The translations under genes and the position numbers were made by a program. 64,000 nucleotides of DNA. Origin: Anas platyrhynchos. Lineage: Eukaryota > Chordata > Aves > Anseriformes > Anatidae. Under the pieces are notes generated by a model that saw nothing but the letters and a program-made list of their open reading frames with translations, searched no databases and had not been told where the DNA came from. Where the stretch lies: positions 11,891,501 through 11,955,500 of the forward strand of contig NC_092604.1 in NCBI RefSeq assembly GCF_047663525.1, in the 5' to 3' direction. Position 1 is the stretch's first letter, and the number at the start of each line of letters is the position of its first letter. Shown here piece after piece: positions 7,041-61,933 of this stretch.

Positions 7041-7502
7041 CCCAGTTGTAAATAAATTATTCCTCGGAAGGGGGATCGAGCATCTTTTCTCCCAACTGCA
7101 AACATGGTGCTCCTGCACAGTGCGTGCTGTGCTGTAGGCAGTGTCAATAAGCTTCAGCCTTGTACCGCACAGGGAAGGTGCAGTACAAGTTAACAGTGTC
7201 AGGTAGCAGCCCTCCAGTCTTGGGGCTGCCATTCACACATGCTTGTGGCATATTAAAAAAAAACATGGAACACTTATAAAAAATGTAAAGGAACCGGCTT
7301 TCCTCTGCCCCAGCTCCCTATTTCATAATCCAACTTCAGAGCCCCTGTGGCTCTTTAACATCTCTCGCAGAAGGATTTCATCTGCCACCCCTCCAGCCCC
7401 CGGTGGCACTAATCCTTTTTTCCCCTTATTCAAAAAATAAACCCTGCTGCCTCCCCCCCCCAAAAAAAAACCCACCCACGCACCACTGCAGTCCTGCAAT
7501 AC

Positions 7503-7651
7503 CTTTGTCCGACATCGCTCCCCAGGGATCCCATCCTCCGAGCCGGTAACAAGGGGCTCACCCCGTGGCCATCCTCGGTGGTTGCCGGTGGGACGGTTTT
7601 CACGTGCGAGTTGCTCTCGGAAGGGGAATTCTTCAGCTTGGCTCTCGCCAT
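7503..7651 (-). CDS. KCNT1: KCNT1 exon 1B, coding part (Slack-B start)
   Basis: The 149 coding nt give 49 codons plus AG. The ATG at 7651-7649 sits in a strong context (A at -3, G at +4: CAGGATGG). The peptide runs from MARAKLKNSPSESNSHVK through HGVSPLLPARRMGSLG to SDVGQ and a split Arg. This matches the Slack-B N-terminus of KCNT1 from birds and mammals (MARAKL..., ...SPLLPAR..., ...GSDVGQR). The donor is AAAG|GTATTG. In known Slack-B the next small exon encodes LPVEDFSLDSSLSQ or similar; I could not find it between 1 and 7502, so it probably lies outside. Slack-B is the slowly activating isoform that associates with Slick in mammals (established knowledge). Confidence 0.93.
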
Positions 7652-8300
7652 CCTGCGAGCCTCGGCTGCTCCGAGACTCCCTCCTCTTTCCCCCCTGAAC
7701 TCTCCCGTACATCGCAATCCTCACCGCATTCAGTTCAGAGCCGGCGGCACGTACCATCTCCTTCCTCCTTCCCTCTCCCCACTCGCAGCAGCCCAGTGGA
7801 ACAATCCTGCCCTGGGCATTTATTTTGGTAGTGAGGGGAGTCCAGGCAAACTCCCCGGCCTTGCTGCTGCAACCAATTCGGTGCGAAAGGACCGGGGAAA
7901 CGCTCACAATGCAGAAAGCTCTGAAATGGCTTTGTTCGGAAAATAATGCAATTGCCTTGGCAGCCTCCTTTAAAAAACAGATGATTGCTTTACTCCTATC
8001 ACCACCAGCAGGGCAGGGGATGAGGGATTATTTTTTCCCCATCCCTGTTTTTTCAGTAGCGACACGAGGGGGAGGAAGCTATTTTATCTTATCCCTCTGT
8101 GTAAAGAGCAGGGTGGACGGGATGCCAGGGAACAGACGCAGTGTGCTTGGCTCGCAGACGCCAAGCAGCAGAGCAAAGGTTCCTCCTAAACGTACCCGCG
8201 GTGAGCTGAGAGGGGGGAACCCACTGCTGCGTCCCTCTGAGCAGGCAGTGGGCACCCCCTGCGCCCACCTGGAGGTGTTCAAGTAGACCCCAGCAGGGTG
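7652..8300 (-). promoter_or_regulatory. KCNT1: Inferred Slack-B promoter and 5'UTR of KCNT1
   Basis: Exon 1B begins with an initiator Met, so transcription must start upstream of it (coordinates above 7651) or an untranslated exon must splice in. No obvious acceptor abuts the ATG. The first few hundred bases are moderately GC-rich. A minus-strand AAAATAAATG segment near 7818-7828 is the only AT-rich core-like element I saw. The transcription start was not determined; this is position-based inference from the known alternative promoter use of KCNT1. Confidence 0.4.
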
Positions 8301-10295
8301 CTGTGCCAGGACAGCACGGCCTTCCCTCCCCAAAAGCCCCATTCCTCTAGACATCAAACAGAGCAGGGAAATCTTCATGGCCAGGGGAGCCCCAGGCAGG
8401 GGATAAATCCATCAGGTCCCCCCATGTGGGGCTGCATCTTGTCCTCTTTCTGGGGGTGCCACCAGCCCATAGCTGCTCTCGCTGTGGGAGCATCTTCCAG
8501 CCGGCCTCAGTAGTGCCAGAGCTCATGGGGTCAGTGCCATGGCACCATGGACAGAAGCACCCCAACACCGCCCATGGAGAGCCCCAAAACCACCCCACGG
8601 AGCATCCCAAAACCGTCCGGCCACCTCCTTCCTCTGCCATGCCAGGGGCCCATCGAGCCCAGGCTCTGCTGGCAGCTCCCCTCCCCGTTGTCAGTGCCTC
8701 GAGGGGCCTCGTCCCGGGACACGGAGGCAGTCCCAGGCTGGTGGGGAAGAGAAACCAGGTCCCTGCCTCCCGTTAACAAAACCCACATTTGCCTACTCGG
8801 CGAGTAATTTCTTAATGGGATTTCTCCGTAAGACGTGTTTTATTTCAGCGTTTTGAAATGTAAAATGGATAAAAAAACCGCAACCCATTTACTGATGTGC
8901 CAGCTTTCAGCACACATTTAATTTCTCCTTTTGCCTCAAAATGATTCATCAAATCAATGCGCCTGGGTCCTCACTGAGCCGTTCCTGCCTGCCTCGGGGC
9001 TTGCTTCAGCCCCCCAGCCCCTGTCCTGCCCCACACTGCGTCCTCTGCTTCGTGCCCTCCTGGGCAAGAAGGGCCAGGGGCTGGGGCTGGGGGACAACTC
9101 CTGTCCTACAGGCAATGACCTGTTGGTTCTGCTCTGCGTGGTGTCCCCAGCTCCAGAGGAATAAGACGTTCAGCATCGAGGTTTGATGGGAAAAGTGGCT
9201 TACGCTGAATTTCTAACCCCGGCGCTAATGTTATCAAGCAGCGGCACTGGGGATAAAGAGGTATTATTAGGGAAAGGCTTGGGGAATTTAAGCAGAAAAC
9301 TGAAGCCCTCCTGTCACACTCTTGTTGTACAGGAGGTGACAAAAAGCATGCAGCCAAGCCCCTTGAGAAACTCAGCTCCTGCCTGTGGGAGCCTCTACCT
9401 GAAGACACCTCTTCCATTAAGCACTTAGCGCGAGCCAAGACACAAAAAACAGGAGAGAAAGGAGAGATCCAAGGCAGGGTCACAAGAAACAGGACACAGG
9501 GCTGCTGTTCTGACCGGCTTCTTCCCTTCTGAGGCAGGAAAGAGACCACCCAAAACTGAGGAAACCTCCTGGAGGCTGCCAGGTCCTCCAGAGAGGGTCA
9601 GGGCTGTGCGCTGTTCTTCAGGCTGCAGCACACGAAGCTGCTGGCAAGGGGAAAAAAGCAAAGAAGCACTCGGCTGCCAGGTCGCTGGTGGAGCACGATG
9701 CTGTCTGTAAGAGGGGAAGGGCTCGCACTGAGTGCTGCAGCTCGGAAAGCGAAGGTCTGTTACTCAGCAAAAGATGGTGAAGACTAATTGCAGGTCCCCT
9801 GTGCTGCTGATGCCAGTTTATGGCTGATGGATGCTTACCCAGAATTCGGGCAAAGCAACAGCCAAAAGGCAGCACTCAATATATAACGAGCGGCGTCCAG
9901 AATGCCCGTTCTTGCTGGGAAGTTGCATGTTCCTAGAAAGAGCAGTGGCTGTAAGACGTAGCCCAAAGCACACGGTGCGAGAAGGCAAAGGACACCCCCA
10001 AGCACGGGACCACGGGGAAGGGAAGCCACCAAAACACAGCCCCAGCAACTTCACGGGCCGAACCAGAATTCCCCTGGCCCAGAAATATTTGCCCGGCTAA
10101 ACGAGTGCCAAATACCTGGCTGCAAGCCAGGAAGCCAGCGTTTCGTTTTCGTTTGAGAACCCATTACAGACTGCTGAGCTCTCATTCCAGGGCCTGCATT
10201 ATGCAGAGCCCACTGCTGTGCCAGGGTCTAGGGAAATGGCTCGGAATTGCTCAGCAGCAGTTGCAGTCATAATAATATTTCTTAAGATAGGATTT

Positions 10296-10314
10296 AAAAA
10301 AAAAAAAAAAAAAA
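10296..10314 (+). repeat. Poly(A) tract, 19 bp
   Basis: Uninterrupted A run in the KCNT1 intron, followed by GCAGCAGATT. Confidence 0.9.
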
Positions 10315-13300
10315 GCAGCAGATTTTTCCTTAGTCTTAATTGAATCCACAGCAACTGTCTCATTAGATATTTCCCTTTTATCTAGGTAGCTTTCAGTCCC
10401 AACTGCCAAAACTCCTTTTACGCACCGATTCAACGTATTAATAATAAAGCATGATCTAGCTTATTGTAAGAAGCTGATGAAATGAGAAGGTGGTTCTTTT
10501 TTTTCTTTTTTTTTTTTTCTTCTGGCAAATAAACCCGTTATGCTGAGACAGAACCCCAAAGTGTTAGCGTGACAGCCTTCTGTAAGAAAAGCCAATTTAA
10601 TACCTTTAAAAACCTTGAGAATTTGCCCTGAAAGGCAGAGACTCCACGCAGGAAGACTTCAGAAAACCACACGAGGTAACTCGCTCGTGTAGGGGTGCAC
10701 ATTTTGCTACAAAACCCCCGTGCTCAGCATTGCAGCACCGCACCGGAGAGACGCCAGCACCCATCACCCCATGCAAGGGGCTGCTGTGCCAGCAGGACTA
10801 CAGGGAAATGAAGACTCATTAAGGTTCGTTATGGGATCATTAGCAAACCCCCAAGTTCTGGGGAGCTCTGGGAGCTGCCCCAGGACCGCCCCTGCTGGCC
10901 CAGGCTGCCCAGCTCTGCACCGGGCCACATCCTGCCCCCTCGCAGTGCAGCCGTCACCGCTTCGTGCCACAACCCCGAGGAAAAGCAAGGCCCCACACAA
11001 TTTTAACCACCACCACATCTTCAGCAGATGCAGCGCTACCTAAATTTCAAGGGCCCTGCAAGTTTAACAGCACGACATTAGCATTTTGGTAAACTTCAGA
11101 GCACCGCTAATACCTGATAAACGTTACAGATTTCCCCAGCCAAGCCATTTGCTGAAGTGTTTTTCAAGAAGCGAACCCGGGCCGGATCCGCCCGTTAGTC
11201 ACCGGGGAATGCCCTACATTTCCACAATGCATTTTGCAAACAGCATTTCAAAACCTGCCAATGCCTCAAGGTTGCCAAGGTTAGTGCACAGCCCTCAAAG
11301 CCAGCGGCTCCACGAGGCTCCTGCAGCCAGCCTGGCGTGGAGAGGCACAAAGAAGAGCTGCTAAAACACCGGCACAGGCACCTCTCTCCAACTGAGCTGG
11401 CTGCAAATGTCAGTATTTTTCAGGAGATTTAAAGATTTTTTTTTTATTTACCTTTTTTTTTTTTTCCTCTTTTCCAAAGGGAAATTAAAATTGCAGAAGA
11501 CTGAGGTTTGGCTTCCTCGCTAGAATATCTTTTTCCTCTGACATTCATTTCAGTTAAAACAACAAATTTGTCAAAAAGAAAAAAAAAATAAAATGTGTTG
11601 ATGCTCCCTTTTCTTTCTCTGCGTGGGACGCATCCCTTCCATCTCCGTGGGGTGCCAGCGCTTCTCATCCTCCCAGCGCCGCGCTGCGGGCAGCGAGCCC
11701 AGAGGCTCCCCGGGGGCACCCGAGCTGCTCACCACGTGCAGCGCTGGCCCAAGAAATTCTTTTCCAACCAAGCCAGATCCTCCTGCCCATCTTTTTGACC
11801 ATCCAACAGCAGGTGGAGTTGTGGTTAATGACAGGGCTGAAGCCAAAGAGCCTCGGTTCCTTTTACAGTTGAGAATATGGTATCGATACATTGATTGCTC
11901 CAGAATTGCAGAGAGATTAAAATATGCAGGAGATGCTTGGGAATCTTCCCTGAACGGCGAGGATGAGCTTGTCTATTGATAACCAGGCTTAGAAAATAAA
12001 GCCTATATTGATCCTGGATCGACCTGAAAACCTCTCTCCACCTTCCATCAGTGAGGTGAGGAAGCCCGCCCGGCACACCATGGAGCAGGAGCCCAGCACC
12101 CAGCTGCTGTGGGGAACCAGCAGGTCCTTCTGGGCGAGGAGCACACCACGAGCACTGGGTTCAGGAGAGAAACAACCCAACCCTCTCTGCAGGGGCTGGG
12201 GGAAAGGCAGGGGACGGCTGGAGGCTCTGAGCCAGCACCCAGGGATGCCAAAGGGGTGCTGGGGACGAGGCCACCACGGCACTTGGCAATTCAATGCACC
12301 TGGGACATGGTTTGCAGCTAAGCACGTGTGAAGCCCCACACCTAGCACACGGCAGCTCCCAATCCTCCCTCTCTTCCCGAGCAGCAGATTGCCAGAGGTT
12401 CTGGGGGGGTTTCCCAGGACTTTGCCTTTCTTTGCAGTGACCCCGTGTCTTGGCAGCCTCATAAAGAGATCCAGCAATGGGCTGCGCGCAGCAGGAGAAA
12501 GCATTTCAATGACTCTCCCCCCGTGCTCGCTGCGCACAGAGGCATTATTATTCTCCATTTGCATTACTGTCACACCGAGAGGCCCCAGCCAAAACAAGCC
12601 TCGGCTCTCCTGGGTTCGGCACAAGCACATAGCAGCGAGCCAGGCCCCTGCAAGCCTGAACTCTGACCAGGGCTGGGGTGGGATTCAGGGCAGGACAGAG
12701 AAGTGGAAAAAAAAAAAAAAAAAAACCTTCCCAGGAGCTTGCTCAGAGATTTTGGCCTCTTTGAGCCCTCCAGCTAAGAAGCCAGCAATTATTTCAGTGT
12801 CACTGCTCCCCACACGAGGACGTTCACTGCCAGGGACTTCAAGCTGGGCTTGGAGCAACCGGAGAGGCAAGGTGCAGGGCAGCAACGCTCACAGGGACTG
12901 GGGCAAAGCAGCTCTGCAGCATGTGCACACCAACCCCTAAAGCACAAGCAAGCAATCGGGGTGTGCCCGGTCTCGCCAGCTTCTCTCCACCAGCTTCTGG
13001 TCCCTCCAGGCACTGCCTTGGCAGGGTTAATTCCTGCGCACAACAGGACCCCGAGAAGTTCCCTGAGAAGCAGCTGGACGGATCTACACCACTGCGAGCT
13101 CTCCTTTGTATCCAGGACTCCTTCCTGACGTTTGTCTTTTTAAAAGCAACGCCATTCACATGAAAAGTTGATTACTTCCACTTGTTCTAATTATTCTCAC
13201 AAATAAAATCCAGCTATTCCCCCCTCTGCGAGTATGGGGGATAATGGCCCTTACCCTTCTCAGCAAAGCGTTTAAGTACCCAGCCTGAGAAGCTCTGTTC

Positions 13301-16300
13301 AGAGCGCTAAGTGTTATTATTAAACTGTCATTAGAAGCATTTCAGGAGAAGTTCATAAAACCGCAGGGATTTCGGGCGTCGCAGCAGCTGCCGGGAGGGC
13401 AGCTCAGCTCGGTGGGTACTGCCAAAAGCGCCAGCCGTGCGACAAGACCCTGCTGCCTTCAGCAGCCTCTGCTGGGGCACCTGCACCACGGACAGTGCCA
13501 GGATAAGCTGTAAGCCCCTTACCCGTGCTGTGCCAGGGGATCAGCCCCCGTTGGGACTGGGATTTGGTAAGGGGGGTACCCAAAAGAGCCCAACCAGAGA
13601 GCCCGGAGCAGCTGCGTGCCACCATCCACCACATCCCCTGGCAGTTGCCCGAGCCTTCGGTACCGCAGCAGACACCGGACACTCACAGGAGCACAGGAGA
13701 TTTGTGTGACTGTGCAGGATGCTCTTTTCTTGCTCGCTCTCCCCATTTAATCCTGGCAGAGCAACCAGCCGAGGCGACTGCAGAGCCCCAGGAGCAGCTT
13801 CAAGCAGGGGCTCTCCCCCTGGCGGGGTCTGCTCGGCGAAACTGGGAGACTTCTGGGATAAACTGGAGTGCTGCGGTTTCGGGGAATAACACTTCAAAAA
13901 TGGAGGGAAGCATCTTTAGCAGCAGCGAGAGGGCTGGAAATAGAAGGAAGCCTTTGAAGAGCCTGGCTGCTGGATATGGGTGGGAAAATTACGTACAGCA
14001 AGAAAACGCGCGCAGGGCTGGCAGGCAGGCTGCAAGCCCAGAGGGGGACGGCGTGGCTGATTGCAGAAGAGCCTTTGATTTCACTTCTCTTCCACATTAA
14101 CATTTCCAACGCTAACAAATGTCCACGGGTCCAACAGGGGAGAGCATCTCCTTTGGGTGCCCAGGGCTCCGGCAGCACCCAGCACCGTGCAGCCGGGCTC
14201 CGCGGCTCCGTGCCAGGGGCTGGGGGTCCCTGGTGCCTCTGGTTGTGGTGCCCGCAGAGCCAGGCCTTACGTAACAGCAGGGACGTGAGCGCCGCGTGTG
14301 CCGAATCCCAAAACTGTCATCGCAGCCTTTACAAAGCCATTTTTACCTCCCTAAGTGTGGCTCGTCAGCGACGAGCATGAAAGCTGCAAAACCAGCATGT
14401 TAACTCGGGACTGCTCGGCGGAGCCGTTCGGAGGAAGAAATAGAGCAGACGTGAAGAGATGCTGAATAAATATCCCCACCAAGTCGTGATGCCTCCGGCA
14501 CCGGGTTCGTGTTTCTTGGTGCATTTTACATGCTCAGGAGCGGAGCAATGAGGCCCTGGAGCCTGACAGGGCCTTGTGATCTCTTCCTAATTTTCTTGAC
14601 AAAGCTGATGCCAGGTTAAAACGGCCAGGGGAGAAGGGGCACGTATCTGTATACTCGTCACAGCTGCTGGAGTCAGTGAGGAAATTAAAAGCCCTGGGGT
14701 AAAATCTAAATATATATCTGCAAGCAAAGCATGAAAAACTCCCCGGCTAGTGCAGAGCAACCCGGCACGGCTGAGTTCCTTTTCCAGGAGAGCACGTAAC
14801 AAGGCTGCTGCCAACCTCTCAGGGTTTAATGGGAGCAGTGACGGAGCCAACACCATCGGGGCTGCACGGTGGTGCTCGTGGTGAGCGATCCCCGCATGGC
14901 ACGGGTGGCACGGCGGCTGTGGACCCGCTCCCCCTGCACTGCCTGCCATTAGCTGCAGCCCGTTGCCTGCCACCCTAACGAACTTTGCACTGTTGGTGTT
15001 TGTTACCCTGAGAATTCATGCGGTGCCTTTTCCCCGTGAAGCAGAGGATGCCTCGCAAACACTGCTCGGTGCAGCTGGCCATGCCCGCGGTGCAGCGGGG
15101 ACACAAATGTCCCTGTGGCCAGGGTGGGTGCATGGCGTGGGGTGGGCTTGCAGGACATGGAGCTCCTAACAGAGACTTTCAAAATGACAAAGTTGTTTCT
15201 AATTTGCAATTTTAAAGGACTCTGAGCTTTTTCTGCATGAGTTTTTTTTATTTCCCCCAGAAACTTTGTAATTAAACTATTAAAATTCTAATGAAACGAC
15301 CTTTAAACTGCAAAACAGTATTTACTGAGGAAATGGCTCCAAGGTTCTGCTTAAAATGCAGAGTTATAGCACCTAGAAGCCTTCCTTAAAGTTTTTTTTT
15401 TTTCTTTTTTAAAAGATGAATCTTCAAAGGAGAAACTTAGGCCCTAGGACTCTCCATCAGCTCTGCCAGCTGTGTCTCACGGTAATAAAAACTTCCTCTG
15501 TCCCCAGGGCTGCTGGATCATTTGACGTACCATTCGCCATATATTTCCAGTATCTGTCACTGCTCATTTTTCTAATACATTACATAAGATAGAGAAAACT
15601 GCAAGTCCCTACAAAAACAGACTCAGGATGCGCTGCAGAAATGAGGCATGAACTCTGTGGAGTTTCTGACAGCCTCACCGGGCTGTGTGGGAAGGACAAG
15701 AACAGGGTTTGTACCAGACCATTGACCTCCAAGTACATTTCTTATTTGAAATTCAGCGAGGAAGTTCTGCTTCCCACCAAACAGCGCGCTGTAGCTGAGC
15801 TCTGCCATGAGCCAGGCATCACTCAACGCCCAGGCAATGTGCAATGTCAGGGCTCGTGCTGTGCCCAGGTACCACTGGGGGCACAAACGGGATCTATTTA
15901 TTCACACCCACAGCCTAAAGAAGGGATCAGCACCAGGACACGCAAAGGAGAAGAAACATTCCCTGTGTGCTGCTTGGCCATAAGAACCATGTAAAAAGAT
16001 AAAAGTCTTGGCCTATTCTCATATCTCGTCTAAGGACACACGTCAATAAAAAGCAACAGACCCCAATTTTTTAAACAGTGTCTCCACAGAGAGCTGCAAG
16101 CTGTTATTTCTCAGCGTCCCTCCGCTTACACTCGTTCTCGCCAGGCAGAAGCTTTCAGGAAGAAAAGCTGTTTAATAAACAGACATCGACAACATACGTC
16201 TCTGATCTCGCAGTCTCATCATCTGGAAATGAGTCCATTAAAGCAAGTGAGAAACTCTCTGATCGTTAAGTTTGTTTAATGTGATCAAGATTAAATTATA

Positions 16301-25300: not shown

Positions 25301-28227
25301 GAGGGTTTCCACAGCACAGAGGATTCCCATAATCCGAAGAGTTGTGTGCCAAGTGGGTGCAAGGGTAGCCAGGTAAAAGCAGGATTTGTTCCCCTGGTTC
25401 TTCACCTTCGTTTTGTTACAGGCCCGACACCGCAAGCTCTGCCTTTGCTGCTCTATTCCAGTGGCTCTGAATGACTTTCACGACAGCAAAACACGAGTGA
25501 GATAAGACACGCAGCACTGCCATCCCAGAGGAGAATCAATCTCTTTATCTTTGACATTGACAGAACCTTCCAAAACGAAAGGAAGAAACTTCTGAACTAG
25601 ACAGGGCTGGGAAAAGGCGAGTGAGGCAACTCCTGTGTTCCCAAAGAGAAGTCTCCCCAGAGAAAACACCTCCCAGTCCCCATTAGTCAGATTTCTGCCT
25701 CGAGACAGCAGTTTGTATCCTCTGGAAACGTAGAGCTGAATGGCAGTTAATCCTGTTTCTATAAACTAAATGACCTGCCTTGCAAAAATGCCAAGCGCAG
25801 CATTTAAATACAGCTGCACTGCATTTAAACACAGCCAAGCCCCAACTCTTCCAGATGCCTCACGGCAGCGAGCTCCAAACACAAATAAGACGACGTTGGA
25901 AGGAGCATTTCCATTTGGTAATTCTAGATTTGCTTGTCATTAGGCTTTTCACTCCCCATTGCACAAATCCACTTACCTCCCCCACTGCTCCTCTAGACGG
26001 TCTTTTCCTAGTTGTTTCCCGGCTGATTTATTAACATCCTCCACACAACGCTTAAAGTATTATTTTAATTTTCACGTCAATCGGTCTACCTGCCAAAGGA
26101 TAAACCTTACTTGGTTAGATTGACTATCTTCACCTTTCGTGGTCCAAAAATAGAAGTAAAATAGGCACCATGTTTTCCACCTGCCTATTCACTGATTAGT
26201 TCTTTCAGTTCTGTGGGTTGTCTGGACACGATCTCTCCTCCTGCCACACCACATCTCTCTAATTGCCCACTTGTTCCAGCAAGCTCTCATCAAGCTCCAG
26301 CAATCTCCTCAAGCTCCAGCATTACCTCATTCTTTTTACCTCGGATCAGGGTTGGTGTCTCCTCAGCATCCTCTCTGATGAGGATGGATTAATAAATATA
26401 CCACAGTCATCTCAGTGCTGTAGCAAAGCACTTCAAAGCACATCTCCGAGCTGCTCGGTATTTATAAGCACAGCATAGCCTAAAAGGCTGTCTGCTTTTC
26501 TTCTGCTGGCCTAAATCAGCTACTGATCCAGTTGGTTTGGAACAGATTAACCTAACAGTGACAGCTACTCTGGAGCCTTTGCTTCACCTCTAAGGCCCAG
26601 AACCACAATGGACTTGGACAGAAACGGAGGCTGAGCAGTGACACTGCCAAAAACCCTCAGCAGAGGCTCCCCAAACTCCCAGTGGGGTCAAGAAGCCCAC
26701 ATGCAAACAGCAGAGGTGTGCTCCTAGATTTGCACTCCCAAACACGTTGTGAAGTTGTTATTTTCTAAATGAAGGGAAAGCCAAACAGCTAAACATAACA
26801 GCCCACAAAGGTGGTGAAACAAAGACACCTTGAGAAACAAGGCTAATGAATTTGCCAAAATAACCCAGAGTATCTCCACAATAAAATTAAAGAGATTCTG
26901 AATTGGAAACATTGAAATCTAGATGAAAAGGAAAAGTAAGGGTAATGACAGTGAAACACTGAAGAAACACAATCTATAATTGCTATTTTCTGCACTTCTG
27001 TTCCATTAAAATACTTACATATGAAAACTACCGAAATGCTGAACTTCAAACTTATTCTAATGATCCGTATCATAACCATTCTGAAATTCAGATATTTTCT
27101 ACAGCAAGAATTTCCAAACAACCTGTCACTTGATACCAGAAGACTATATTAATGTTTAAATGCCTGCTAGGGAAATTTGGGCTTTAAAAACATAAGGATC
27201 ACAGACTCATTTTTGAGAAAGACCGATTTTTATGCAGCTATAAAAGTTAGAAATGCTTATCTAGAACATTTGTAAATCCCACATTCTCAAACCCAAATTC
27301 ATATATGTATTTTGTCTGACATTTATGCATGAACTAATCAGACTACCTTTTAATACAGACGCACAAAAGCTTTGTTTCAGGTCTACCAAATACACAGCAG
27401 CTACCCGAAAGCTAACTCAGCAGCAGTGGAAGAGGGATTTTCAACAGCTCTCCCTGGTCACATCGTGCAATCAGTTGATGGAAAAAGATGACAATCTTTT
27501 TGATTCCCCACTGGCAGTGTAGCTCCTTGAATTTTATCATATGAACAGACTTGAAAGGACAGTTATTCTTCTTGTTCTCCATGTAATTGCTCCTCTTATG
27601 GAATTCACTTGCCTCTCATGACATTCTTCCTCTCGCTTTAGCTCAGTCAACCCAGTAATAAGCCCCCGCCAGCCAGGAAGGAACAGCAGGCTTGGTGCTC
27701 AAGCCACAAAGCCCATTTCCCTAGACAGCCCAAGAAAGGGAGAGTTGTGCCACATCCACAGCAGCTCTTTCAAGTCAATCTGCTCCTATCGGCATTCCCT
27801 GCCGCAAAGACAGCCTCTGAGAACAGGCTGGCTGAGCTTTACTTCTGAAATAAACGTACGCGCTCATGCACACGGCTTAACGGGGAGTTTCCCCAGCCCC
27901 TCACCTCGCCATCTGTATGCTATCCACCTCCCGGAGAGCAACCCCTTTCATCCTCGCCATCCCTTATCAGGACTCCCAGGGACAGCAGACTGCTTGGCAG
28001 ACCCTCAAGTCTCCACATCCGCTTCCCCAGTACCCCCACAACTCCCAGTGCCCAACATACCCCCGCGCTCCCCATGCCCCCCACCCGAGCCGTGCCCACG
28101 CACACCGCAGCGCCAGCTTCCCGGGACGAGCCCGCAGGCCCACCCTCCTCCTCCTCCTCCTGCCCCCCAGCTCCCCCAAACCCACCCCAGCACCCCGATG
28201 TACCCAACGCCACCCGGCGCCCACCCC

Positions 28228-28300
28228 CAGCACCGCGGAGAGCCCCGCGCCCAGCACCGCGGAGAGCTCCGCACCCGGCGCGCTCAGCACCGCGGAGAGC
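28228..28300 (+). repeat. Short GC-rich repeat, three copies of a 16-mer
   Basis: CAGCACCGCGGAGAGC occurs perfectly three times, at 28228-28243, 28252-28267 and 28285-28300, with spacings of 24 and 33 bp. It lies in the intron just downstream (in transcript terms) of KCNT1 exon 2A. Confidence 0.9.
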
Positions 28301-28338
28301 TCTGCGGGGCCCGGGGGGCGACCCCTGGCCCCAGGATC

Positions 28339-28520
28339 GTGTGTCCCCACCCGGGTACCTGGGTCGTGTCCCCCCCAGTGGTATGTGACCCCCCCAGGTA
28401 TGTGTGTCCCCCCTCCGGGGTGCTCATGTCCCCCCCGGGTACGTGCGTCCCCCTTCGGGTACTCGTCCTCCACCCGGTACACGCGTCCTCTCCGGGTCCG
28501 TGTCCCCCCCCCCGGTCCGT
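28339..28520 (+). repeat. Minisatellite abutting the KCNT1 exon 2A donor
   Basis: About eight or nine imperfect units of roughly 18-25 bp share a GTGTCCCCCC core and a GGGTAC core. In transcript orientation this is a G-run-rich array (GGGGGGACAC, GTACCCGGGT) that begins about 20 nt inside the intron after exon 2A. The units differ by substitutions and small length changes, so the boundaries are approximate. Confidence 0.75.
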
Positions 28521-28537
28521 AGCCGAGCCCCCCGAAC

Positions 28538-28699
28538 CTGTCGTCGCTCTGGAAGGACTGATCGCCCAGCAGCAGGTCGCGGAAGCGGTAGCGGGGCGGC
28601 AGGGGCAGCACCTCGGACTCCAGCTCCGTCATCTTCAGGGCGGCGATGTCCAGGATCAGCCCGCTCCTGCGGCCCCCGCAGCCGCCGGGCGACGACAGC
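28538..28699 (-). CDS. KCNT1: KCNT1 exon 2A (Slack-A conserved leader)
   Basis: This internal exon is 162 nt long: one nt completes an Arg codon, then 53 codons, then AG. The acceptor reads CTCCCGCAG|GCTG. The peptide starts [13 protein letters not shown], passes through [16 protein letters not shown], and ends with [16 protein letters not shown] and QSFQSDD. This is the part shared with KCNT2 (Slick), whose own start Met aligns with the internal Met of KMTELESE (ATG at 28632-28630). The donor is ACAG|GTTCGG, weak at +3 to +6. The frame closes correctly into the shared exon, where the split AG gives Arg before the expected VQVEF sequence. The opposite strand carries a long proline-rich open frame that is only a GC-driven shadow. 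Confidence 0.92.
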
Positions 28700-29140
28700 C
28701 TGCGGGAGACGAGGGGGCAGCGGCGGTGAGATTGGGTTTGGGGTGGGGGGGGGGGGCTCCCTGCCCTGCCCTGCCCGGCCCTGCCCTGCCCGTCCCCCGT
28801 CCCCCCCCTCCCGGTACCTCCTCCCACCCCCCCGCAGCCCCGCACGCACCGCCCGTGCATTTACATTGCGGGGCCGGCGGCGGCGCCCCCCCGGCAGAGC
28901 GCCCCCCCCGGGGGCATGGGGGCGCCCGTGGGGCTCCGCCGGCTTCGGGAGTGGGGAGGGGGCAGAGCTCGGGCCTCCCCCCCCCCCACCCTGCTCGGCT
29001 CTGCTCGCTGCGCAGGGCAGCGCAAGGAGAGGAGCCCCTGGAAATGGCAAGGGGAAATAAAAGAGCTCGCAGGGGAGCTCTACAGCCGAGAGCCAAAGCC
29101 GGATCCTCCCCCTCCGCTCAACCCCCTCCCCACCACCCAA
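28700..29140 (-). promoter_or_regulatory. KCNT1: CpG-rich block upstream of KCNT1 exon 2A
   Basis: A strongly GC- and CpG-rich segment with homopolymeric G/C runs lies upstream (in transcript terms) of exon 2A, extending the GC-rich block around the exon. It could be only composition around a GC-rich exon, or a minor promoter. The internal Met of exon 2A, which aligns with the KCNT2 initiator, would then be usable. There is no direct evidence of transcription starting here. Confidence 0.35.
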
Positions 29141-29999
29141 GGAAAAAAAAAAAAAGTAAGGGTGGTGGAGAGACAAGGAGACGGCTCCCCGGCTGCTGTG
29201 CCGGGAGCAGAAGCACAACCTCCTCCCCAGCCTGCCGGCACTTAAATCATCCGGACAGTCCCGCTATTAAATGAGAAACCGCGAAGGCTGATGACTCAGT
29301 CATCTGTCCAGCCGCCAAGTGTCATGGCCGAGAGGATCTATCACCCGTCCCTCGGCGTGCTCACGCCTCTGATCAGAGGTGCGGGGGATCGCGGAGCCTG
29401 GGAGAGATCCAAAGCGGTGGTTCAGACAAAGAGGGCTTTGTACGGTCACCTACACGCAGCCTGTTCCTGCCACACGGCACAGAGGCGAAGCTCAGCCAGC
29501 TCCCAGACTGGCATTCGAGATGCTAAGGGCTCGTCTTGGCTCTCCTTTGTCAAACCACACTCACCAAACATGGGTACTGCACCGCTCCCCGTGTCATCTA
29601 GGGCTGCCAATTAGAGCTGATGGGAGTTAAGCTCATTTCACAAGGCAACAAAGCCATTGAATCCTGGAGAGCCAACGTGCAGGCACACAAAGCAAGATCC
29701 CTGGTCCCGAGCCTCTGGGTCCTGACTTCAATTTCAAATTAATCTGCACCATGAGAGTCACTCCAGTTTCACAGCCCTTTGTGGAAAGCAGGATGGAGGG
29801 GGAGAGCTCAAAGAGGAAATGTGGCACCTCTGCAGCAAGACAATTCTTTGCCCTCACACTTAAGCTTGAAGTGAGAGGTATGCAAACAGCTGAAAGGGTC
29901 CAACTCCTGCCAGGGGCACTTCCAAGGGGCTCACCCCAAGCCTCTCCAAGACTCACTCCTACCACCTTCCCTTGGCCTCCAGCACATAGCATACAGGGG

Positions 30000-30040
30000 A
30001 GAAAAAGAAAAAAAAAAAGAAAAAAGAAAAAGAAAAAAGC
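30000..30040 (+). repeat. A-rich low-complexity (GA5-11)n patch
   Basis: Runs of A interrupted by single G residues in the KCNT1 intron. Confidence 0.85.
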
Positions 30041-33000: not shown

Positions 33001-35653
33001 GAGTGCCCTTTGCAAGGGGCCACGCTGGGGAAGAGCACACACACGACATGTGGTTTTTCTCCCAAAAAAAACACATTTTAAACATCTATCTTCTAAGCAC
33101 AAGTCTCATAACCAAGAGGTAAGCGACTGCAACCAGAATGCCTCCCAGCCTTAAAAATAATCCACGAGGAACAAAAGTGCTGCAGGATGCACAAATGGAG
33201 CCTGCCCCAGCACAGCCTCGTGAAACACCACTCCAAAGGAGCATTCATTGAGGGCAACCCCACAGACCAAGCGTGGGGGCAGCAGTGATGAACTGGTGAG
33301 CTTGCAGTGCTACTCCACGACCACACATGAAAAAGAGCTCAAACAACAGGCACTGGGGACCCAGGCACTACAGCCCTCAGCTTGACACAGAGATAGGGAA
33401 TCAGGAGAAGGTGAGAGGGGATCTGTTTGCCTCAATAAGACCATTTTCTTCTTAAACATTTCTGTGTCTACAAGCAAACAGCTTCCACGTCATTTAATTT
33501 TTATCAGCTTCTTGTTGCTTGTAGGATGGTCACACTTCTTGACTCAAAAAGAGTTTTAAGTGCTCCAAAGGATACAAAGAGGCCCCTCATAATGCCCATG
33601 CCACTGTTCCAGCTGCTTTTGGCAGCCTTGTCCCAGGCCATGCTCAGTGGGTACGGCGGGTGCAAAACATCCCCACACACACATGCAAGATGTGAAGTGC
33701 TTGGTCCCCAAATTTAACTCCTGCATCCCCATTTGCATCTCCCTGAACAGCCACACCGTCCATGGCAGGGGCTGCAGTTGCTCAAAACTTCTACATAAAA
33801 CCGCTCAGACCTCTGACGAATCCATCTATTGCTTCGCTTTCAACAAGCGGAGGCAATTTAGCTCCACAGGCCTTGCAGAAAATTTAGCATTTTGTGTATT
33901 TCACTTTGAAAACTAACAGGAAGCGTGAGTCAGTGCACAACTCCGCAAGCGTTCTCCCCGCTGGCAATGCTATTTTCTAGAAGATAAAAGTATAAATTGT
34001 ACCTTCCAGGTCCAGAGTCATTTTTCTTATTAGACAACCCCGTATTAGCAATTCAGTGCCACATATCCCCGTTCCCTTCTGGCCTGATGCACACGTACAG
34101 TTTGTACCACAGGGTGAAACTCCCCGCAGCCGAAGCCCCGCCGAGGAGGTTTGTCACCCCCTTGTCCCATCGGGCACACCAGTGGCACAACCCGGCACCA
34201 AGCCCCCCTGGCCCAGCCCTTGCACCAGCAGCGATTGCTCCTGGCAGAGGTAAACACGTTGGGCTGATGCCCCAGGAGCCAAAATAATGTTGGGGGAAAG
34301 GAGGAGGGGAGCAGAGGCTGCGTGCCCTGGGCACAGATCAGCTCCCTCCTCTGCCAACCTGGCCTGGGGCTGCCACACCAATGGAGCGAGACCAAGGCAT
34401 AGAAACAGGTTCCAGATTGTGACATCCATCTAGTTACAGCTAACATCTGGGGGGATGAAGCCCCCCAGACACAAACGGCCTAGGCCAGGACAGTCCCAGC
34501 CCATGGCCACCCGTCCTCGCCGGCCCTTCCCGGCACCACAGCCACGGGCAGCCTGTGCGGGAAGGACAGACCCAAAACGCTCCCAGCCTGCGAGCTGAGG
34601 TCGCTAACCCTGCCGGGAAGCTGCTGACCCGGTGATCTCTGGGGCTATTTATGGATTTTGCCATTAGAGTGGATTTTCCCCTCGCACGCTGCTGCTGAAG
34701 AGCAGGATTCCCCGAGTTCAGCCCTTCCCAGCAAGGACTGGAGCCTTCGTCCTTATCACGATGTTGGGCCTGCAAGGTGGCCTGGCAGCACGTGCGAGTT
34801 CATCCAAAAGTAGAATCGCTCCCAGAGTTCAAGAAGCCAAGCAACAAGGACAGATGCTGCTGGGAGTAAGAAGCGATCCCTCCCTCACGATCCCATGCCA
34901 CGAGGCCCCTCGGTGTCACTGGGGGGATTTCTGAGGCCTGCACCCCGGGCTCCCTGAAATCACCAGGCCTTCAGTGACAGGGTGCTGCCACGGGCAGGGA
35001 CAACAGGCTCACAATTCACATCAAACCACAAAAAATTAAACCGAAACAGATTATTAAACTGAAAAGACAGCAATGCAGATATAATTCCTACCGACACCAC
35101 CACAAGCCCCCACACCTCAGCGGCTCCTCTGCTCACCTCCTTTAGCTGTCGCTTTTCTCAATGCGGCCACGCTCACTGCCCAGCCCCGGGGCAGCCCATC
35201 TGTCCACGAGCTGGAGATGCCACAAATAACCTCGCCCACAGGTCTCTGTCCCCCTTTTTCCAAGGTTTCAGGTCTTTTCGGACGCCCTGAAAACCCTTCT
35301 GGCTGCAGGCACGCTCCTGGCCCAGGCTCTGCAGCCTGAGTGCTCCTCGGCCACCCAGCCTCGCTGTGCTGTGTCCCTTCCCGTGTCACCCTTCCCATAT
35401 CACCCAGCAGCTGCCCCTGGGGACCCTGCTCCAGCTGCTGACACTGCGAGGAAGGCCAGAAGGCCGAGTGGGTCTCAGCTCTCCCATGCAAACACTTCTC
35501 ATCCCCCACAGACCCTACTGCTCCATCGCAGGCACCAGCACGCCCCTTTGCACGACACAGGCAGACCTCCTCCCTCCAGCCTGGGGTGCAGAAAAGCTTT
35601 CCTCCAGCCGAACTGAGCCTTGACATTCCTTTGCCCTCGTGCTGTTGCCCCAA

Positions 35654-35682
35654 TTTTTTATTTATTTATTTATTTATTTATT
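35654..35682 (+). repeat. (TTTA)n microsatellite
   Basis: About six to seven uninterrupted TTTA units, following a CCAATTTT lead. Confidence 0.92.
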
Positions 35683-36006
35683 AATTTTTCCTGGGGCTTC
35701 CCATCCCCACGCGGAGCTTACCTGGGACCGATTTCATCCACCCCACCTTGGGAGCCAGCCAAAAGCCTCATCTCTGTAGACGCCTGGCTGCAGGCAGGAG
35801 AAAGCTACCTGCTCCCGGCTGCCATCAGGATGAGGAAGGAGAGCCCATCCAGGCCGAGCTCGTTAATCCCCAGCATCGTTATTCCCAGGAACTGACGGCA
35901 CACCTGGTATCCCACAGCACAGGATCCTCTCGCTCACCCTTCTGCTCCCAGCTCTTACATGCCCTCCCAAATCTGCCAGTGCCCAACACTTTTCAGGCTC
36001 ATATTC

Positions 36007-36033
36007 AAAAAAAAAAAAAAAAAAAAAAAAAAA
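36007..36033 (+). repeat. Poly(A) tract, 27 bp
   Basis: Uninterrupted A run about 350 bp upstream of the LINE relic. It is on the wrong side to be that element's tail in plus orientation. Confidence 0.95.
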
Positions 36034-36369
36034 GGCTGCAAAATCAGGACACTGCTAATTCTTGCTAATGATCTGCTGGGAAAATCCTCCCCTCTGCTCT
36101 AAGCAGCCAGGAACAAAGCACAGAGAAGAAACTTCTCGGCACTCCAGACCCCTGCAGAACGCTCCCTTCTACTGAGAGCAGAAAATAATAGAGAGGCGTG
36201 GGAGGAGGAAGAGTCTCTGCACATTGCTCGGGGATACAAAGGCTTACAGGAATAAACCCCGAGAGGCAGGCTTGTCAACCTGCCTGCCAGACCAGGGCTG
36301 TGATGGGGCGAAGGGGGGGATATCTCCCGGATTAGGAGACGGGAAACAAACAGGAGGGCAACATGAAGC

Positions 36370-37090
36370 AAACGTTGTGTGGGGGGTCCCACAAGGCTCG
36401 CTGCTATTCCGCGAATTCAGAAGTGATGGCGAGGAATCCAAATTATCCAGCATGGCCAAGCCTGGACCTGACTGTGAAGAGCTGCAGGAGGATCTTACAG
36501 TACTGTGTGACCTGACGATAAAATAACAACGAAAATTAGCATCAGTAAATGCCAACTGATCCCAAATGCGGAGGAAGGGGGGTGACGTATTCCTGCACAG
36601 GCACTAAAAGGTCTGCAAATTAGCAGCCAGAAAAGACCAAAGTCACTGCAGAGAATGCCACGGAGTCAGCAGCTGCCTGTCAGTGGTGGTCGGAGAAGAG
36701 GAGCAGAACCCGAGCAGAGGCTGTTGGGCTGCAGGCAAACCCGCACTGAGCAGCGCACAGTTCTGGTTCCCCTCCTCAGAGATGATGTGGCACAGAGAAG
36801 GGCAACAGAGCTGACTACGGGGATGTAAAGCACTTTGTACAAGGAGAGACTAAATAGATCAGGAGGAGCCTTAAGCCTGGAAAGAGACGCGATGAAAGGG
36901 AGGTGAGATCAGACAGAGCGACCAAGGAGCACATCACTGGAGCTGCAGGAGCCCTGGGCAATTACAGGGCAGCAGGGCTCAAGCAGAAAGCAGCTCAAGC
37001 AGCGTGCTTTCACAGACCAACCTCTTCAGAGAAGCCACATCCTCTGGTGGAGGCAGAAAGTAATAGGTTTAAGAGGGACCAGGCAGGTCC
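36370..37090 (+). mobile_element. Ancient CR1/L3-like LINE relic (reverse transcriptase 3' part)
   Basis: Translated remnants include WGVPQGSLLF near 36380-36410, matching the GVPQGS-x-LGPLLF block of LINE reverse transcriptases. In the expected downstream order come a CTGCAGGAGGATCTTACAGT block (about 36481), a CATCAGTAAATGCCAACTGA block (about 36540), AGAAGGGCAACAGAGCTGAC (about 36797), GGAGAGACTAAATAGATCAG followed by CCTTAAGCCTGGAAAGAGACG (about 36842-36890), and AAAGTAATAGGTTTAAGAGG (about 37056). These are diverged counterparts of landmarks in CR1/L3-class elements. The frame is broken and parts are deleted, so it cannot encode a functional protein. Confidence 0.65.
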
Positions 37091-40000
37091 CCAGGGAGGT
37101 ATCCATCCCTGTGGCTCAGCACAGCCGTGGGACACGGTCCCAGCCCCAGCAGCACAACCAGAGGCTGTGCTGTGCCTGCCCCAAGTGCCTGCCACCAGCC
37201 ACAGGGCCAGAGGCACCTGGGTTCACCCTAGCACGGCCACTTGTCTGTTTTTATTCACAAGAAGAATGAATGAGCTGTTCCACAGTCCGGCACAGTTTGG
37301 CACGGACGCAAGAGAAATATTAACAAGGCTCCAAAACAAATTGAGAGCAGCACTTGGGAACCATGCGTGGAGGTCAGGAAGAGGTCTCCGTTGGAGAGCT
37401 GGGAGGATCCAAATAGATGCTGCACATATTTCTGCAGAGCACAAAAAGCCTTGAGCACAAGCAATGACCTACTTTGCTGCCCTCCAGCGAAGGGTGACAC
37501 AGCCATGCAAGACCCCAATGGCATTTTCTAATTAAATGCAATATCAAGGACATTTCTGAAACCCTTCTCCAATGATGGTCGGGTGCTGCAGGATGGTTTT
37601 AGCAGCACCACCTGCTGACAGACGTGCCCAGCCCTGGACTTCAGGCTCCTGCGTGCTGCCCCGTCCTAGGCAGCTGAGGAAAACAAGAGCAGAATTCCTT
37701 CTTATCTCTGCTAGATAAACACTGAAAATACGTGGTGTTTGGCCCTGGAGTTTTATGGCTCCCTATTGCAATTTCTCCTGGAACAGGGAGGCCAAGATCC
37801 CCACAGCCACAACCGTTGTTGCAATCCACGAGGTTGGCTTTTTGGAAGCTGATAAATGTCTAAGCTGGTAATCTAGCCTGGCAGAGCTGGTCATTAATTA
37901 GCTACAGAGTCTGGTTCAGTGCGAGCCCTGCCAAGGAAGCATCTTGCCTCTCATTTCCAGGAAGTGGAAAGAGAGCTGCAGGCTGCCTGCTACGGGCACC
38001 ACTCCTCCGCTGAACCGAGCCAGGTCACTCGACAGACCCAGCGTGGAGCAGAAAAAGCCACAGGAGAGCCATCCTGTGCCCGGAGGAGTGTGCACATTGA
38101 GCCCGAACCCAGTTTTAGTCGATGTCTTTCTGTTGCATTCACATCCCTCATGGACTCAGACCAGCCCTCGCATCGAGACGAAGCCCTGGAGAGCCAAGGA
38201 CAGCGGGCACCCGGCTGGCCTGGCCCCAGCAGAGGCTCTTGCCAGAGAGGCAGGCGATGCCTCCAGGCGGTGTTTGCTGCCGCTTTGTTTTTGCTTTCAG
38301 CCTGGCTGCAACTGCCAGGACAGCGAGCACGATGCTGGCTGCCAGCCCGGTGGGACTGGGGGCAGACCCCGCTGCAGCACAGCCCCCGTTGAGACCAAGC
38401 CCCCTCCACGAGCACGGAGCAGAAAGCGGCTGCCTCTCTCCACCCAGGACACCCAGGAGCCAGGGCAGCAGCAAGCAGAGAGGCACAGTGGATGCGTAAA
38501 GGACCGACACACTGCCCCATAACGGGGGCAGCCACCACAGCCCCTGAGAAACCTTTGGAGCGAACAAACCCAGCAGTGAAGTGCACCCCATGGTGCAGGG
38601 ACTGGTCCCACGGTGCAACACCAGTGACACAAATGTCCCCCCCCATCTGCAGCTCTCCATCCCCCAGCTTCAGCCTCTCCAGGGCTCGCACCGGTGACAC
38701 CGTGCCCTGCGGATCCCGTTGGGATCGGATCCCAAGGCCGTGGCGAGGTGCCCAGCCGGCACGGGATGAGCAGCACACAGACAGCACTCCTGGAGGAGGC
38801 TGCAAAACCAACCACGAGAAAAGCCACGTACGTCTGAGGCACGGCCGCGATGCTCCTAAACGGCTTCTCCAGGTACCACCGCACGTGTCTTCTCCGTTCG
38901 CCTTTTTCTTCTGAAACAAGCCATGGTGACGGGAGGCAGCGGGTGGAAAAGCCGCGTCTGCTCTTGCACGTCTGCTTCGCTCGCAGGCCCCCTCGCTTGT
39001 GCAGGGTATTTTCGCGTGAGCCCTTCCATATGGCCTCTCATCCATCACTGCTCCTTGCCAGAGTGCCCTTACATGGGCAAGGCGGAGGAAGCAGAGCTTC
39101 TGGCCAGGGGGAAATCCTGTATTCCCCTAAGTGACAGCCTAGCTCCTTGTACAAACATTTACCCATGTTTCCCATGAGGTAGGAAAGTAAAATTTAGGCT
39201 ATGTGTACCCTAAGTGCCAGAAATGTGTATTTGTTCTCCAAACAGTCCTTTAAGTGCTTTTATGGTTAACCCCTTGCTTTCCGACAGCTTCCAGGACCAT
39301 TGTCCCCTTCCAACTAGGACCAGCAGAGAGCACACGGACACTTACACCCACACCTGCACACTCCGGTGACCGAGCAGATGGAGTTCCTCTCCACCAGCTC
39401 CCAAGTCACCCCTAGATTTGCAGAGCAAGAGGACAACAGAGGCGTCAACCCATTTTAATGGGGCCAGCCCAGCTGACATCCCCTTGAACACGAACGTTAG
39501 GCAGAAGGCACATTTAACGTCCTACACATCTTCGCCTCTCAGCTCTACCCGGCTCTCACATCACATCCCTCGCACACACCTCTGGTGCCGGGTCCGCTCG
39601 TCTGCCACCACCCCACAGCCACACAGAGCGGGGCCAGGAACCCATAAAGGGGTCCTAGAGTGTAGCCTCAGCTGTTCAGAGGAGAAGCCCCAGGAGGCGA
39701 GGAGGAAGGTCTCGCTCCGGCACAGGCGAGCACCCAGCGCAGCGATGCGCACCCCCAGCCCCAGGGGGAAGCCAAGCAGCAGAGCAGCCAGCGGGCCCCC
39801 AGACCACCCAGCGGGCGGGATGGTGCTCGTTGCTCCAGCACGTTTCTCTTTGCACTGTTTACAGGGAATGTTTCTTTCTCCTTCAGCACTGAAAGGCTAC
39901 GTTAGAGATCCGGACTGCACCGAGCCTGGGAAACGGGCAGCTGCAGGAAACTGCCGAGTCCTGCGGGCTCAAGGCAGCTCGTTTGGTACCTCTGGAAGGG

Positions 40001-41382
40001 CAGCAAAGGGCTGTGCCCAGCAAGAAGGCGAGAGGAGCCGCGGAAAGCAATGGCATTTCAACCTCTTCAGAGCCAGAGGGGGTTAGAAACACATGGAGCC
40101 GCGTAATCATAATTAAAAACCCGAGCTCTTCTCTTCAGCTTGAAAAAGGCAGAGGGGAGGACCTTTGGACGAGGATTTTGTTGTGTTAGATGAGGATAAA
40201 TTCCACCGAGCAGTATTGCAGAACAAGTAGAAAGGAGCAAACAGCTCTGCTGGCTGAGCTCGTGGCTGTCCCAGGTCGTTGGCCACCAGCAGCCGCCTCC
40301 CCTGACTGCTCTCTGCGCACCCACGGACACCTTCGGGAACCTCATCGAGCACATCACGTCTGCAAACACACTGAGTACAGGTGCAAAATGAAGAAACAGG
40401 TTTAGCTGAAGGTACCACGGCCCCGTGGCTGTCCCGGCACACCCAATGCCCCCAGCAGACAGACAGACGGACGTCCAAGCGGCGCTTTGGGGAGTTGGGT
40501 GGTCCCGGTCCTGAGGCTCTGCAGTGCCTGGGCTGCATCGGACACCTCTGCAGAGAGGACGGCAGGGGGAGAAGTGATGGGGGGCTCACCCCCAGCAACT
40601 CAAGGACTTTACTGATTACCCAGCCAGCAGCAATGTTCTGAAGTTAGAGAGTTCACTGACTACCCTGCTCCGTCTGTTTCTGTCTTGTCCTTCAGGAATA
40701 AAAGATGGTCTGCCCCAATCAGAGGGAGATGTCAACATAAAAACAAAACAAACAAACAAAAAAACAACACCAGAGTCGTCCAGCCCTGGGCACAAACCCA
40801 GCCAAGGTCCTTGTCTGCCAAGAGCAAACCGATGCACACACTTGATTTGCTCGGGGAAGCTGACATTGGCTGAGTGTGACAGCCAGAAGAGCCACACCAG
40901 TAAATGCAATCAGACTGATGAGAATATAACGGAGTTATCGGGAAAAGCTGGGAGACTTCAGCAACAAGCACACGTCCCCTTGTAAGACGAGTGTCTGCCC
41001 CTGCCCAGGAACAAGACAGGCTCCTCCAGGGCACACTGGGGGGCCCTGCACCCCGTAACTTGGCCAAGGACCACACGGGGCCAGAGCATGGCCAGGATGC
41101 GACCCTTCTGCAGGCATCGACCCGGGCTCAGTTCAGGGCTTAGCCGAGGCAGCTCCCCCAAATCTGTGCCCAGCCTGCACACCTTGGGGCCCCTCCATGC
41201 AGGGCAGCAGTGACGGGGGGCTCCAGGCCTCCCACTGCCCCCTTCCTGGTGCGACAGCACCCAGAGGGGGGATGTGGGGTGGGGGGGTAGGGGCTGAAGG
41301 TGTCCCACACAAACTTTCATGGGATCACAGTGGGGAGAGGGCCTGCCAGAGCCCTGAGGGGTCACGGCGGTGCCCCCTTCTC

Positions 41383-41580
41383 TTTCCCTTCACCTTTTCC
41401 TTCCCTTCTCCCTTCCCTTTTTCTACCCCTTCCTTTCCCCTTCCCCTTATTCCTTCCGCTCTCCGATCTCTTTCTCTTCCCCTTCCTTTTTCCTTCCTCT
41501 TCCCCTTCATCTTCCCTTTCTCTTCCCATTTCCCTTCCCTTTCTCTTTCCTTTTTCCTTCCCCTTCCCCTGTCCCATCCC
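41383..41580 (+). repeat. ~200-bp polypyrimidine (polypurine on minus) tract
   Basis: The plus strand is almost purely C/T, made of CCTTCC, TTCCCC and CTCTTTCC words, with only a few A/G interruptions. In KCNT1 transcript orientation it is a purine-rich tract starting about 40 nt after the exon 1A donor. Such tracts can form triplex (H-DNA) structures and usually vary in length between individuals. Confidence 0.93.
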
Positions 41581-41619
41581 ATCCCCATCCCCTCCCGACC
41601 CCGCCGCCCCCGGCCCCAC

Positions 41620-41756
41620 CTGTGGGCGCTGCCATCGTCGTAGAGGAAGGTGCTGTTGGTGTAGCACTCGGAGCACCCCGCAGCCCCTCCGGCCGCCCTC
41701 CCCTCGGCCGGCCGGTAGCTGCCGGGCAGGCTCCGCTCCTCGCCCGCGAGCGGCAT
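41620..41756 (-). CDS. KCNT1: KCNT1 exon 1A, coding part (Slack-A start)
   Basis: The 137 coding nt give 45 codons plus AG. The ATG is at 41756-41754. The peptide begins MPLAGEERSL and ends SECYTNSTFLYDDGSAH, then the phase-2 AG that makes Arg with exon 2A. Mammalian Slack-A also begins with MPL and carries a YTNxTFxxDDG motif here, which supports this start. The middle is low-complexity Ala/Gly and looks poorly conserved. The donor reads CACAG|GTGGGG. The open frame upstream has only GTG and no in-frame ATG close by, so MPL is the natural initiator. The exon sits in a CpG-rich block, as expected for a first exon. Confidence 0.88.
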
Positions 41757-41825
41757 GGGCGCAGCGGCTCGGAGCAGGGCATGGGCGCCCCGCGCTGCCC
41801 ACGGCACGGCCGCAGGCACCGGCGC

Positions 41826-41873
41826 GCTCCCGGTGCCGCTCCCGGTGCCGCTCCCGGTGCCGCTCCCGGTGCC
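41826..41873 (+). repeat. 12-bp tandem repeat, four perfect copies
   Basis: GCTCCCGGTGCC is repeated four times without error, followed by a partial fifth copy. It lies 70-117 bp upstream of the Slack-A ATG, so it is probably in the 5'UTR or core promoter. Confidence 0.97.
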
Positions 41874-41981
41874 CGCCGCCCATCACGGCGAGCCCCGGCG
41901 CCGCCGCAGCCCGCGGGAGCTCCGCATCTCGGGGCCCGGGGGCTGCGGGGCCGGGAGGGATGGATGGAGGGAGGGAGGGAG

Positions 41982-42009
41982 AAAAAAAAAAAAAAAAAAA
42001 AAAAAAAAA
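41982..42009 (+). repeat. Poly(A) tract, 28 bp, within CpG-rich DNA
   Basis: Uninterrupted A run preceded by a (GGGA)n stretch (41954-41981) inside the KCNT1 promoter area; in transcript sense it is poly(T). Confidence 0.97.

Positions 42010-61902: not shown

Positions 61903-61933
<31 letters not shown>

What the first reader, a model, noticed from the sequence alone, without database searches (positions are those of the whole stretch)
7503..41756. Both alternative N-termini of KCNT1 (Slack-A and Slack-B) are preserved, about 34 kb apart
Exons 1A+2A and exon 1B encode different cytoplasmic N-termini, and 2A and 1B both end in AG at phase 2 so either can join the shared channel exons. In mammals these isoforms come from separate promoters and differ in activation kinetics and partner choice. 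Seeing both in a bird-like genome suggests the dual-promoter design predates the bird-mammal split. Annotation pipelines could easily miss 1A, which is tiny and lies in GC-rich sequence.
Basis: partly seen in the sequence, partly recalled or inferred. Interest (0 to 1): 0.7.

Follow-up and report, generated by a model that had tools for sequence, protein, structure and literature searches.

The report
Two alternative KCNT1 start modules, bird
This bird-like stretch carries the known alternative beginnings of a brain potassium-channel gene, KCNT1; the exons are real and conserved, one is nearly identical to the published chicken channel, and the design is ordinary rather than new.

Summary
The three exons are real, on the minus strand, with the stated boundaries. 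Exon 1B (7651-7503) matches chicken KCNT1 (PDB 5u70) residues 1-49 at 47 of 49. Exons 1A+2A match the N-terminus of the KCNT1 in PDB 8hir (E 5e-17); the 2A core matches at 26 of 31. Randomised windows support 2A and 1B overwhelmingly; 1A is weaker and rests on one block (8 of 11), start codon, position and phase. Three details change. (1) 1B probably does not join the shared exon directly: chicken KCNT1 has 15 more residues (50-64), not found in the window; reading frames imply a separate B-only exon of about 42 nt beyond position 1. (2) A review says the Slack-A N-terminus is smaller than Slack-B's. That fits a start at the Met inside 2A (32 residues before the shared Val; Slack-B 64), not at 1A (100). 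(3) Separate bird promoters are untested; the two CpG-richest stretches lie over 2A and 1A, suggesting up to three starts. The chicken B form was known and the other end resembles the paralogue Slick, so conservation is expected. Low novelty.

The parts
41620..41756 (-). KCNT1 exon 1A, coding part (46 codons incl. the split one): start of the long N-terminus; GT donor at 41619-41618
   Evidence: in-frame stop 129 nt upstream
28538..28699 (-). KCNT1 exon 2A: N-terminal segment ...[31 protein letters not shown](R)
   Evidence: 26 of 31 residues identical to 8hir 54-84
28630..28632 (-). Met codon inside exon 2A, candidate start of the short (literature Slack-A-like) N-terminus, 32 residues before the shared Val; A at -3
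   Evidence: the size argument uses
7503..7651 (-). KCNT1 exon 1B, coding part: Slack-B N-terminus MARAKLKNSPSES...GSDVGQ(R)
   Evidence: 47 of 49 residues identical to chicken 5u70 1-49; in-frame stop 72 nt upstream
41351..42550 (.). CpG-rich stretch over exon 1A (108 CpG, o/e 0.80): candidate promoter
27826..29600 (.). Largest CpG-rich stretch of the window, over exon 2A (136 CpG, o/e 0.68): candidate further promoter
7351..7950 (.). Weak CpG-rich stretch over exon 1B (31 CpG, o/e 0.68); not distinctive against the other such stretches of the window

Best explanation
This is the 5' end of a bird-like KCNT1 (Slack, Slo2.2) gene with two alternative N-terminal modules in front of shared exons that lie beyond position 1. 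Module A is 1A+2A. Module B is 1B plus an unseen exon '2B' of about 42 nt. Transcription starting upstream of 1A (and perhaps at 2A) gives Slick-like N-termini; transcription starting upstream of 1B gives the Slack-B N-terminus. The cytoplasmic N-terminus chosen would set gating speed and whether the subunit co-assembles with Slick, as in rat. Shown here: exons, frames, splice signals, homology. Inferred: promoters, joins, 2B, function in birds.
For: 1B matches 5u70 1-49 at E 8.7e-24; 1A+2A match 8hir at E 5.1e-17 over residues 29-99 of 99; 8hir starts MPLPDGAR and runs DDR-VQVEFY; 5u70 runs GQ-RPHAEDFSMDSSFSQ-VQVEFY. All three exons end in phase 2 at GT donors. Randomised-window controls. The two CpG-richest stretches lie over 2A and 1A. 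Rat precedent: N-terminal isoforms driven by independent promoters, different kinetics, Slack-B-specific pairing with Slick (review PMC3850776, passages). For 2B as a separate exon: 2A ends in AG at phase 2, so the first shared base completes Arg; in the B form the same base must complete Gln64, so the bases before it are CA, not an AG acceptor (inference).
Against: No RNA, no 5'-end data and no shared exon in the window. Exon 1A alone finds no solved-structure relative (0 matches at E up to 10); its whole-length match to human 1A (18 identical of 42 aligned columns) was reached by 1 of 60 randomised windows. Its ATG has a weak context (C at -3) and lies behind three upstream ATGs if transcripts start upstream of 41927. 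2A and 1B donors match only 6 of 9 consensus positions. The 1B CpG stretch is unremarkable. No sequence outside the window and the PDB was available for comparison.
Confidence: 0.9

Rival explanations
1. Three start points rather than two: the large CpG island at exon 2A is itself a promoter, and translation from the Met in 2A gives the short, Slick-like Slack-A, while 1A gives the separate long form seen in 8hir.
For: Largest CpG-rich stretch of the window lies over 2A (1775 bp, 136 CpG); the 2A Met has A at -3 while the 1A Met has C at -3; 32 residues before the shared Val fits 'Slack-A smaller than Slack-B'; five rat N-terminal transcripts are reported.
Against: GC-rich coding exons in GC-rich surroundings can look like islands; exon 2A has a good acceptor (17 of 22 pyrimidines), so it is at least also an internal exon; leaky scanning on 1A transcripts could make the short form without a third promoter.
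Confidence: 0.35
2. Only the B form is used in birds and 1A (not 2A) is a decaying or chance open stretch.
For: 1A diverges strongly from human outside one block; no PDB match on its own; upstream ATGs. The known chicken protein is the B form.
Against: Start codon, YTN.TF..DDG block, GT donor and phase all line up with the human N-terminus, on the correct strand and upstream of 2A.
Confidence: 0.07
3. 1B joins the shared exon directly, and the 15 extra chicken residues come from a 5' extension of the shared exon.
For: Phases would allow a direct join.
Against: Chicken 5u70 has residues 50-64 in between; a contiguous extension would put CA, not AG, directly before the base used by the A form (inference).
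Confidence: 0.08

Closest known systems
Chicken Slo2.2/KCNT1 (PDB 5u70, 5u76)
   Same: Exon 1B encodes its residues 1-49 at 47 of 49 identity
   Different: Two substitutions (residues 28-29); its residues 51-115, which were searched for, are not encoded in this window
KCNT1 of PDB 8hir and 5 further entries (human, by recall)
   Same: 1A+2A encode the same kind of N-terminus: Met-Pro-Leu start, YTN.TF..DDG block, and ...[19 protein letters not shown]... core
   Different: The part before the YTN block is about 10 residues longer here, Gly/Ala-rich; the human 1A/2A exon boundary was not seen in any call (I cut at residue 37)
Rat Slack-A / Slack-B isoforms (Brown et al. 2008, not held; known here through passages of review PMC3850776)
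   Same: Two alternative cytoplasmic N-termini, one of them Slick-like
   Different: Rat has promoter and expression evidence and five transcripts; the reported Slack-A N-terminus is smaller than Slack-B's, unlike a 1A-initiated protein

Membership tests
KCNT1 gene | N-terminal coding exons specific to KCNT1 isoforms | tested here: met
KCNT1 gene | Pore, RCK domains and shared S1 region | not testable with these tools
   first shared residues not in window; own-genome search not answered
Slack-B isoform | MARAK... N-terminus | tested here: met
   47 of 49 to 5u70
Slack-B isoform | Further B-only residues (50-64) before the shared region | tested here: inconclusive
   not found in the window; the gene continues beyond position 1, which could not be read
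Slack-A isoform (as in review PMC3850776) | Slick-like N-terminus, smaller than Slack-B's | tested here: inconclusive
   size fits only if translation starts at the 2A Met, 28632; resemblance to Slick is from the papers, no Slick sequence was compared
Long KCNT1 N-terminus (8hir) | 1A+2A encoded N-terminus | tested here: met
   E 5.1e-17; 1A portion weaker
Dual-promoter KCNT1 | Independent transcription starts for the A and B modules | not testable with these tools
   only CpG content and start-codon context examined

The most novel reading that the evidence does not exclude
Bird KCNT1 has three separate start regions (1A, 2A and 1B), giving three N-termini of about 100, 32 and 64 residues before the shared channel, so that neurons can choose among a long, a minimal Slick-like and a Slack-B end; the long form would be subject to upstream-ATG control.
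Probability: 0.25. Interest if true: 0.4.

Novelty: new member of a known kind. Interest (0 to 1): 0.2.

Why it matters
It places both KCNT1 N-terminal modules in a bird-like genome at base resolution, gives coordinates for isoform-specific probes in bird brain, and indicates that the exon choice behind fast or slow sodium-activated potassium currents is at least as old as the bird-mammal ancestor. That age is what would be expected, since the chicken B form was known and the other end is reported to resemble the paralogue Slick.

Tried and rejected
Looked for the first shared residues (5u70 65-115) and for chicken residues 51-64 in six frames of the window: best scores were at random level (39, reached by 34 of 60 randomised windows; 28, reached by 52 of 60). 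A scan of every minus-strand position from 7503 down to 46, with or without a splice signal, matched at most 5 of the 13 residues 51-63. The recalled mammalian counterpart of that segment also found nothing (best 23 of 67). So neither is taken to be in the window; the window holds no N. Rfam scan of the window: 0 matches at gathering score. Pfam scan of the two N-termini: 1A+2A 0 families; 1B one sub-threshold match taken as chance, E 0.048, 14 bits against a cut-off of 27. An own-genome search with exon 1B, meant to reach the sequence beyond position 1, did not complete. The primary papers on the isoforms, PMC2652154 and PMC3688047, are not held, so I relied on passages of a review. Structure prediction, fold search and the bacterial, viral, phage and plasmid collections were not used: they hold no vertebrate genomes, and the N-termini are short.

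Full report
OBSERVATION. Exon 1A codes from the ATG at 41756 to 41620 and ends in AG at phase 2 at CAG|GTGGGG. Exon 2A runs 28699-28538, opens after CTCCCGCAG, keeps phase 2 and ends at CAG|GTTCGG. Exon 1B codes from the ATG at 7651 to 7503 and ends at phase 2 at AAG|GTATTG. Each start has an in-frame stop upstream in the genomic sequence: 129 nt for the 1A ATG, 231 nt for the 2A Met (there the stop lies in the intron), 72 nt for the 1B ATG.

IDENTITY. The 1B peptide matches KCNT1 in PDB 5u70 over residues 1-49 at E 8.7e-24, 47 of 49 identical, and no other distinct PDB sequence at E up to 1. That 5U70 is the chicken channel was seen in passages of PMC12682947. The joined 1A+2A peptide matches KCNT1 in 8hir at E 5.1e-17, best stretch 29-99 of 99, and no other distinct PDB sequence at E up to 1. 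That 8hir is the human protein is recalled; only mentions published human KCNT1 structures. The core from the Met in 2A is 26 of 31 identical to 8hir 54-84.

CHANCE. Controls are randomised windows, first-order Markov per 1 kb, searched in six frames like the real one. Human 2A scores 174 (maximum 46 in 60) and chicken 1B 239 (maximum 61 in 60). Human 1A scores 56, reached by 1 of 60 (maximum 58). Exon 1A alone finds nothing in the PDB at E up to 10. Its final block, YTNSTFLYDDG against YTNRTFEFDDG, 8 of 11, scores 46 against a maximum of 29 in 72, but I picked that block after seeing the alignment. Position, strand, Met-Pro-Leu start, donor and phase add to the case for 1A, which remains the weakest of the three.

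In 5u70 the end of 1B (Q49) is followed by RPHAEDFSMDSSFSQ and only then VQVEFYVNENTF. In the A-type protein 8hir, DDR is followed at once by VQVEFY. Neither the B segment nor the first shared residues were found in the window. Because 2A ends in AG at phase 2, the first base of the shared exon must complete Arg; in the B form the same base must complete Gln64. The two bases before it in B transcripts are therefore CA, which cannot be the AG acceptor used by 2A. The B segment should be a separate exon of 1+39+2 = 42 nt beyond position 1. This is inference from the two proteins and the window's exon phases; it assumes the GT-AG rule and that this species has the chicken segment.

CORRECTION 2: WHICH FORM IS SLACK-A. 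[quoted passage not shown] PMC5319697 (passages) also says the Slack-A end resembles Slick's. Here a start at 1A would give 100 residues before the shared Val, a start at the Met in 2A 32, and the chicken B form has 64. Only the 2A Met start is smaller than Slack-B. The 1A+2A product is therefore best called the long, 8hir-type N-terminus. I take 'smaller' to mean residue count; the primary papers were not held. PMC10942592 names its NM_020822.3 clone Slack-B (passage); which N-terminus that record has was not checked.

PROMOTERS. The scan found 19 CpG-rich stretches, 10 of them 500 bp or longer. The two with most CpGs lie over 2A (27826-29600, 136 CpG) and 1A (41351-42550, 108 CpG); the next has 67. 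The stretch over 1B (7351-7950, 31 CpG) is ordinary for this window. This suggests, but does not show, starts at 1A and 2A. The 1A ATG has C at -3. If transcripts start upstream of 41927, three ATGs precede it; the frames opened at 41883 and 41782 overlap the 1A start, the one at 41927 closes before it. The 2A Met has A at -3, and 1B has A at -3 and G at +4. Translation from the 2A Met by leaky scanning or from an own promoter is thus plausible.

CONTEXT. An open reading frame with a Galactosyl_T domain lies on the plus strand at 50745-51887, and two pieces of a proteasome 26S subunit family lie on the minus strand within 60938-61895 (one piece at 38.1 bits above the Pfam cut-off of 23, the other at 18.4 below it). 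I recall these as B3GALT9 and PSMD5; no call names them so. KCNT1 lies at or close to the boundary of rearranged chromosome fragments according to passages of PMC5571153.

PRIOR KNOWLEDGE. A table row of PMC3711925 (passage) lists KCNT1 with a zebra finch gene, marked complete, and what I take to be a chicken gene identifier. The chicken B-form protein is a solved structure. In eight literature searches (one search listed 30 of 186 papers, one search listed 10 of 11, the others all they found) no listed title or abstract start, and no passage I saw in the eight papers opened, describes the A module in birds. Many journals are not held and gene-annotation databases were not available, so this is no claim that it is undescribed or unannotated.

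VERDICT. Real exons, an ordinary and expected case of conserved alternative N-termini, with two corrections to the model and one open question (two or three starts).

Noticed in passing
50745-51887 (+): Open reading frame of 380 codons (stop to stop) with a Galactosyl_T domain (E 5e-36), probably B3GALT9 (name recalled), upstream of KCNT1 on the other strand.
   Followed up: partly
60938-61895 (-): Two pieces matching Pfam Proteasom_PSMB (38.1 bits, above the cut-off of 23; 18.4 bits, below it), probably 5' exons of PSMD5 (name recalled), overlapping a CpG-rich stretch at 61101-61825.
   Followed up: partly
41374-41570: About 200 bp of pyrimidine-rich repeats on the plus strand, beginning about 50 bp inside the intron after exon 1A; could hinder sequencing or annotation of 1A.
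   Followed up: no
41825-41873: Perfect 12-bp tandem repeat, 4.1 copies, 69 bases or more upstream of the 1A start codon; it is read as HRER repeats in the upstream frame opened at 41883.
   Followed up: no
61851-62095: Two 122-bp tandem copies, 91% matches, upstream of the PSMD5-like pieces.
   Followed up: no
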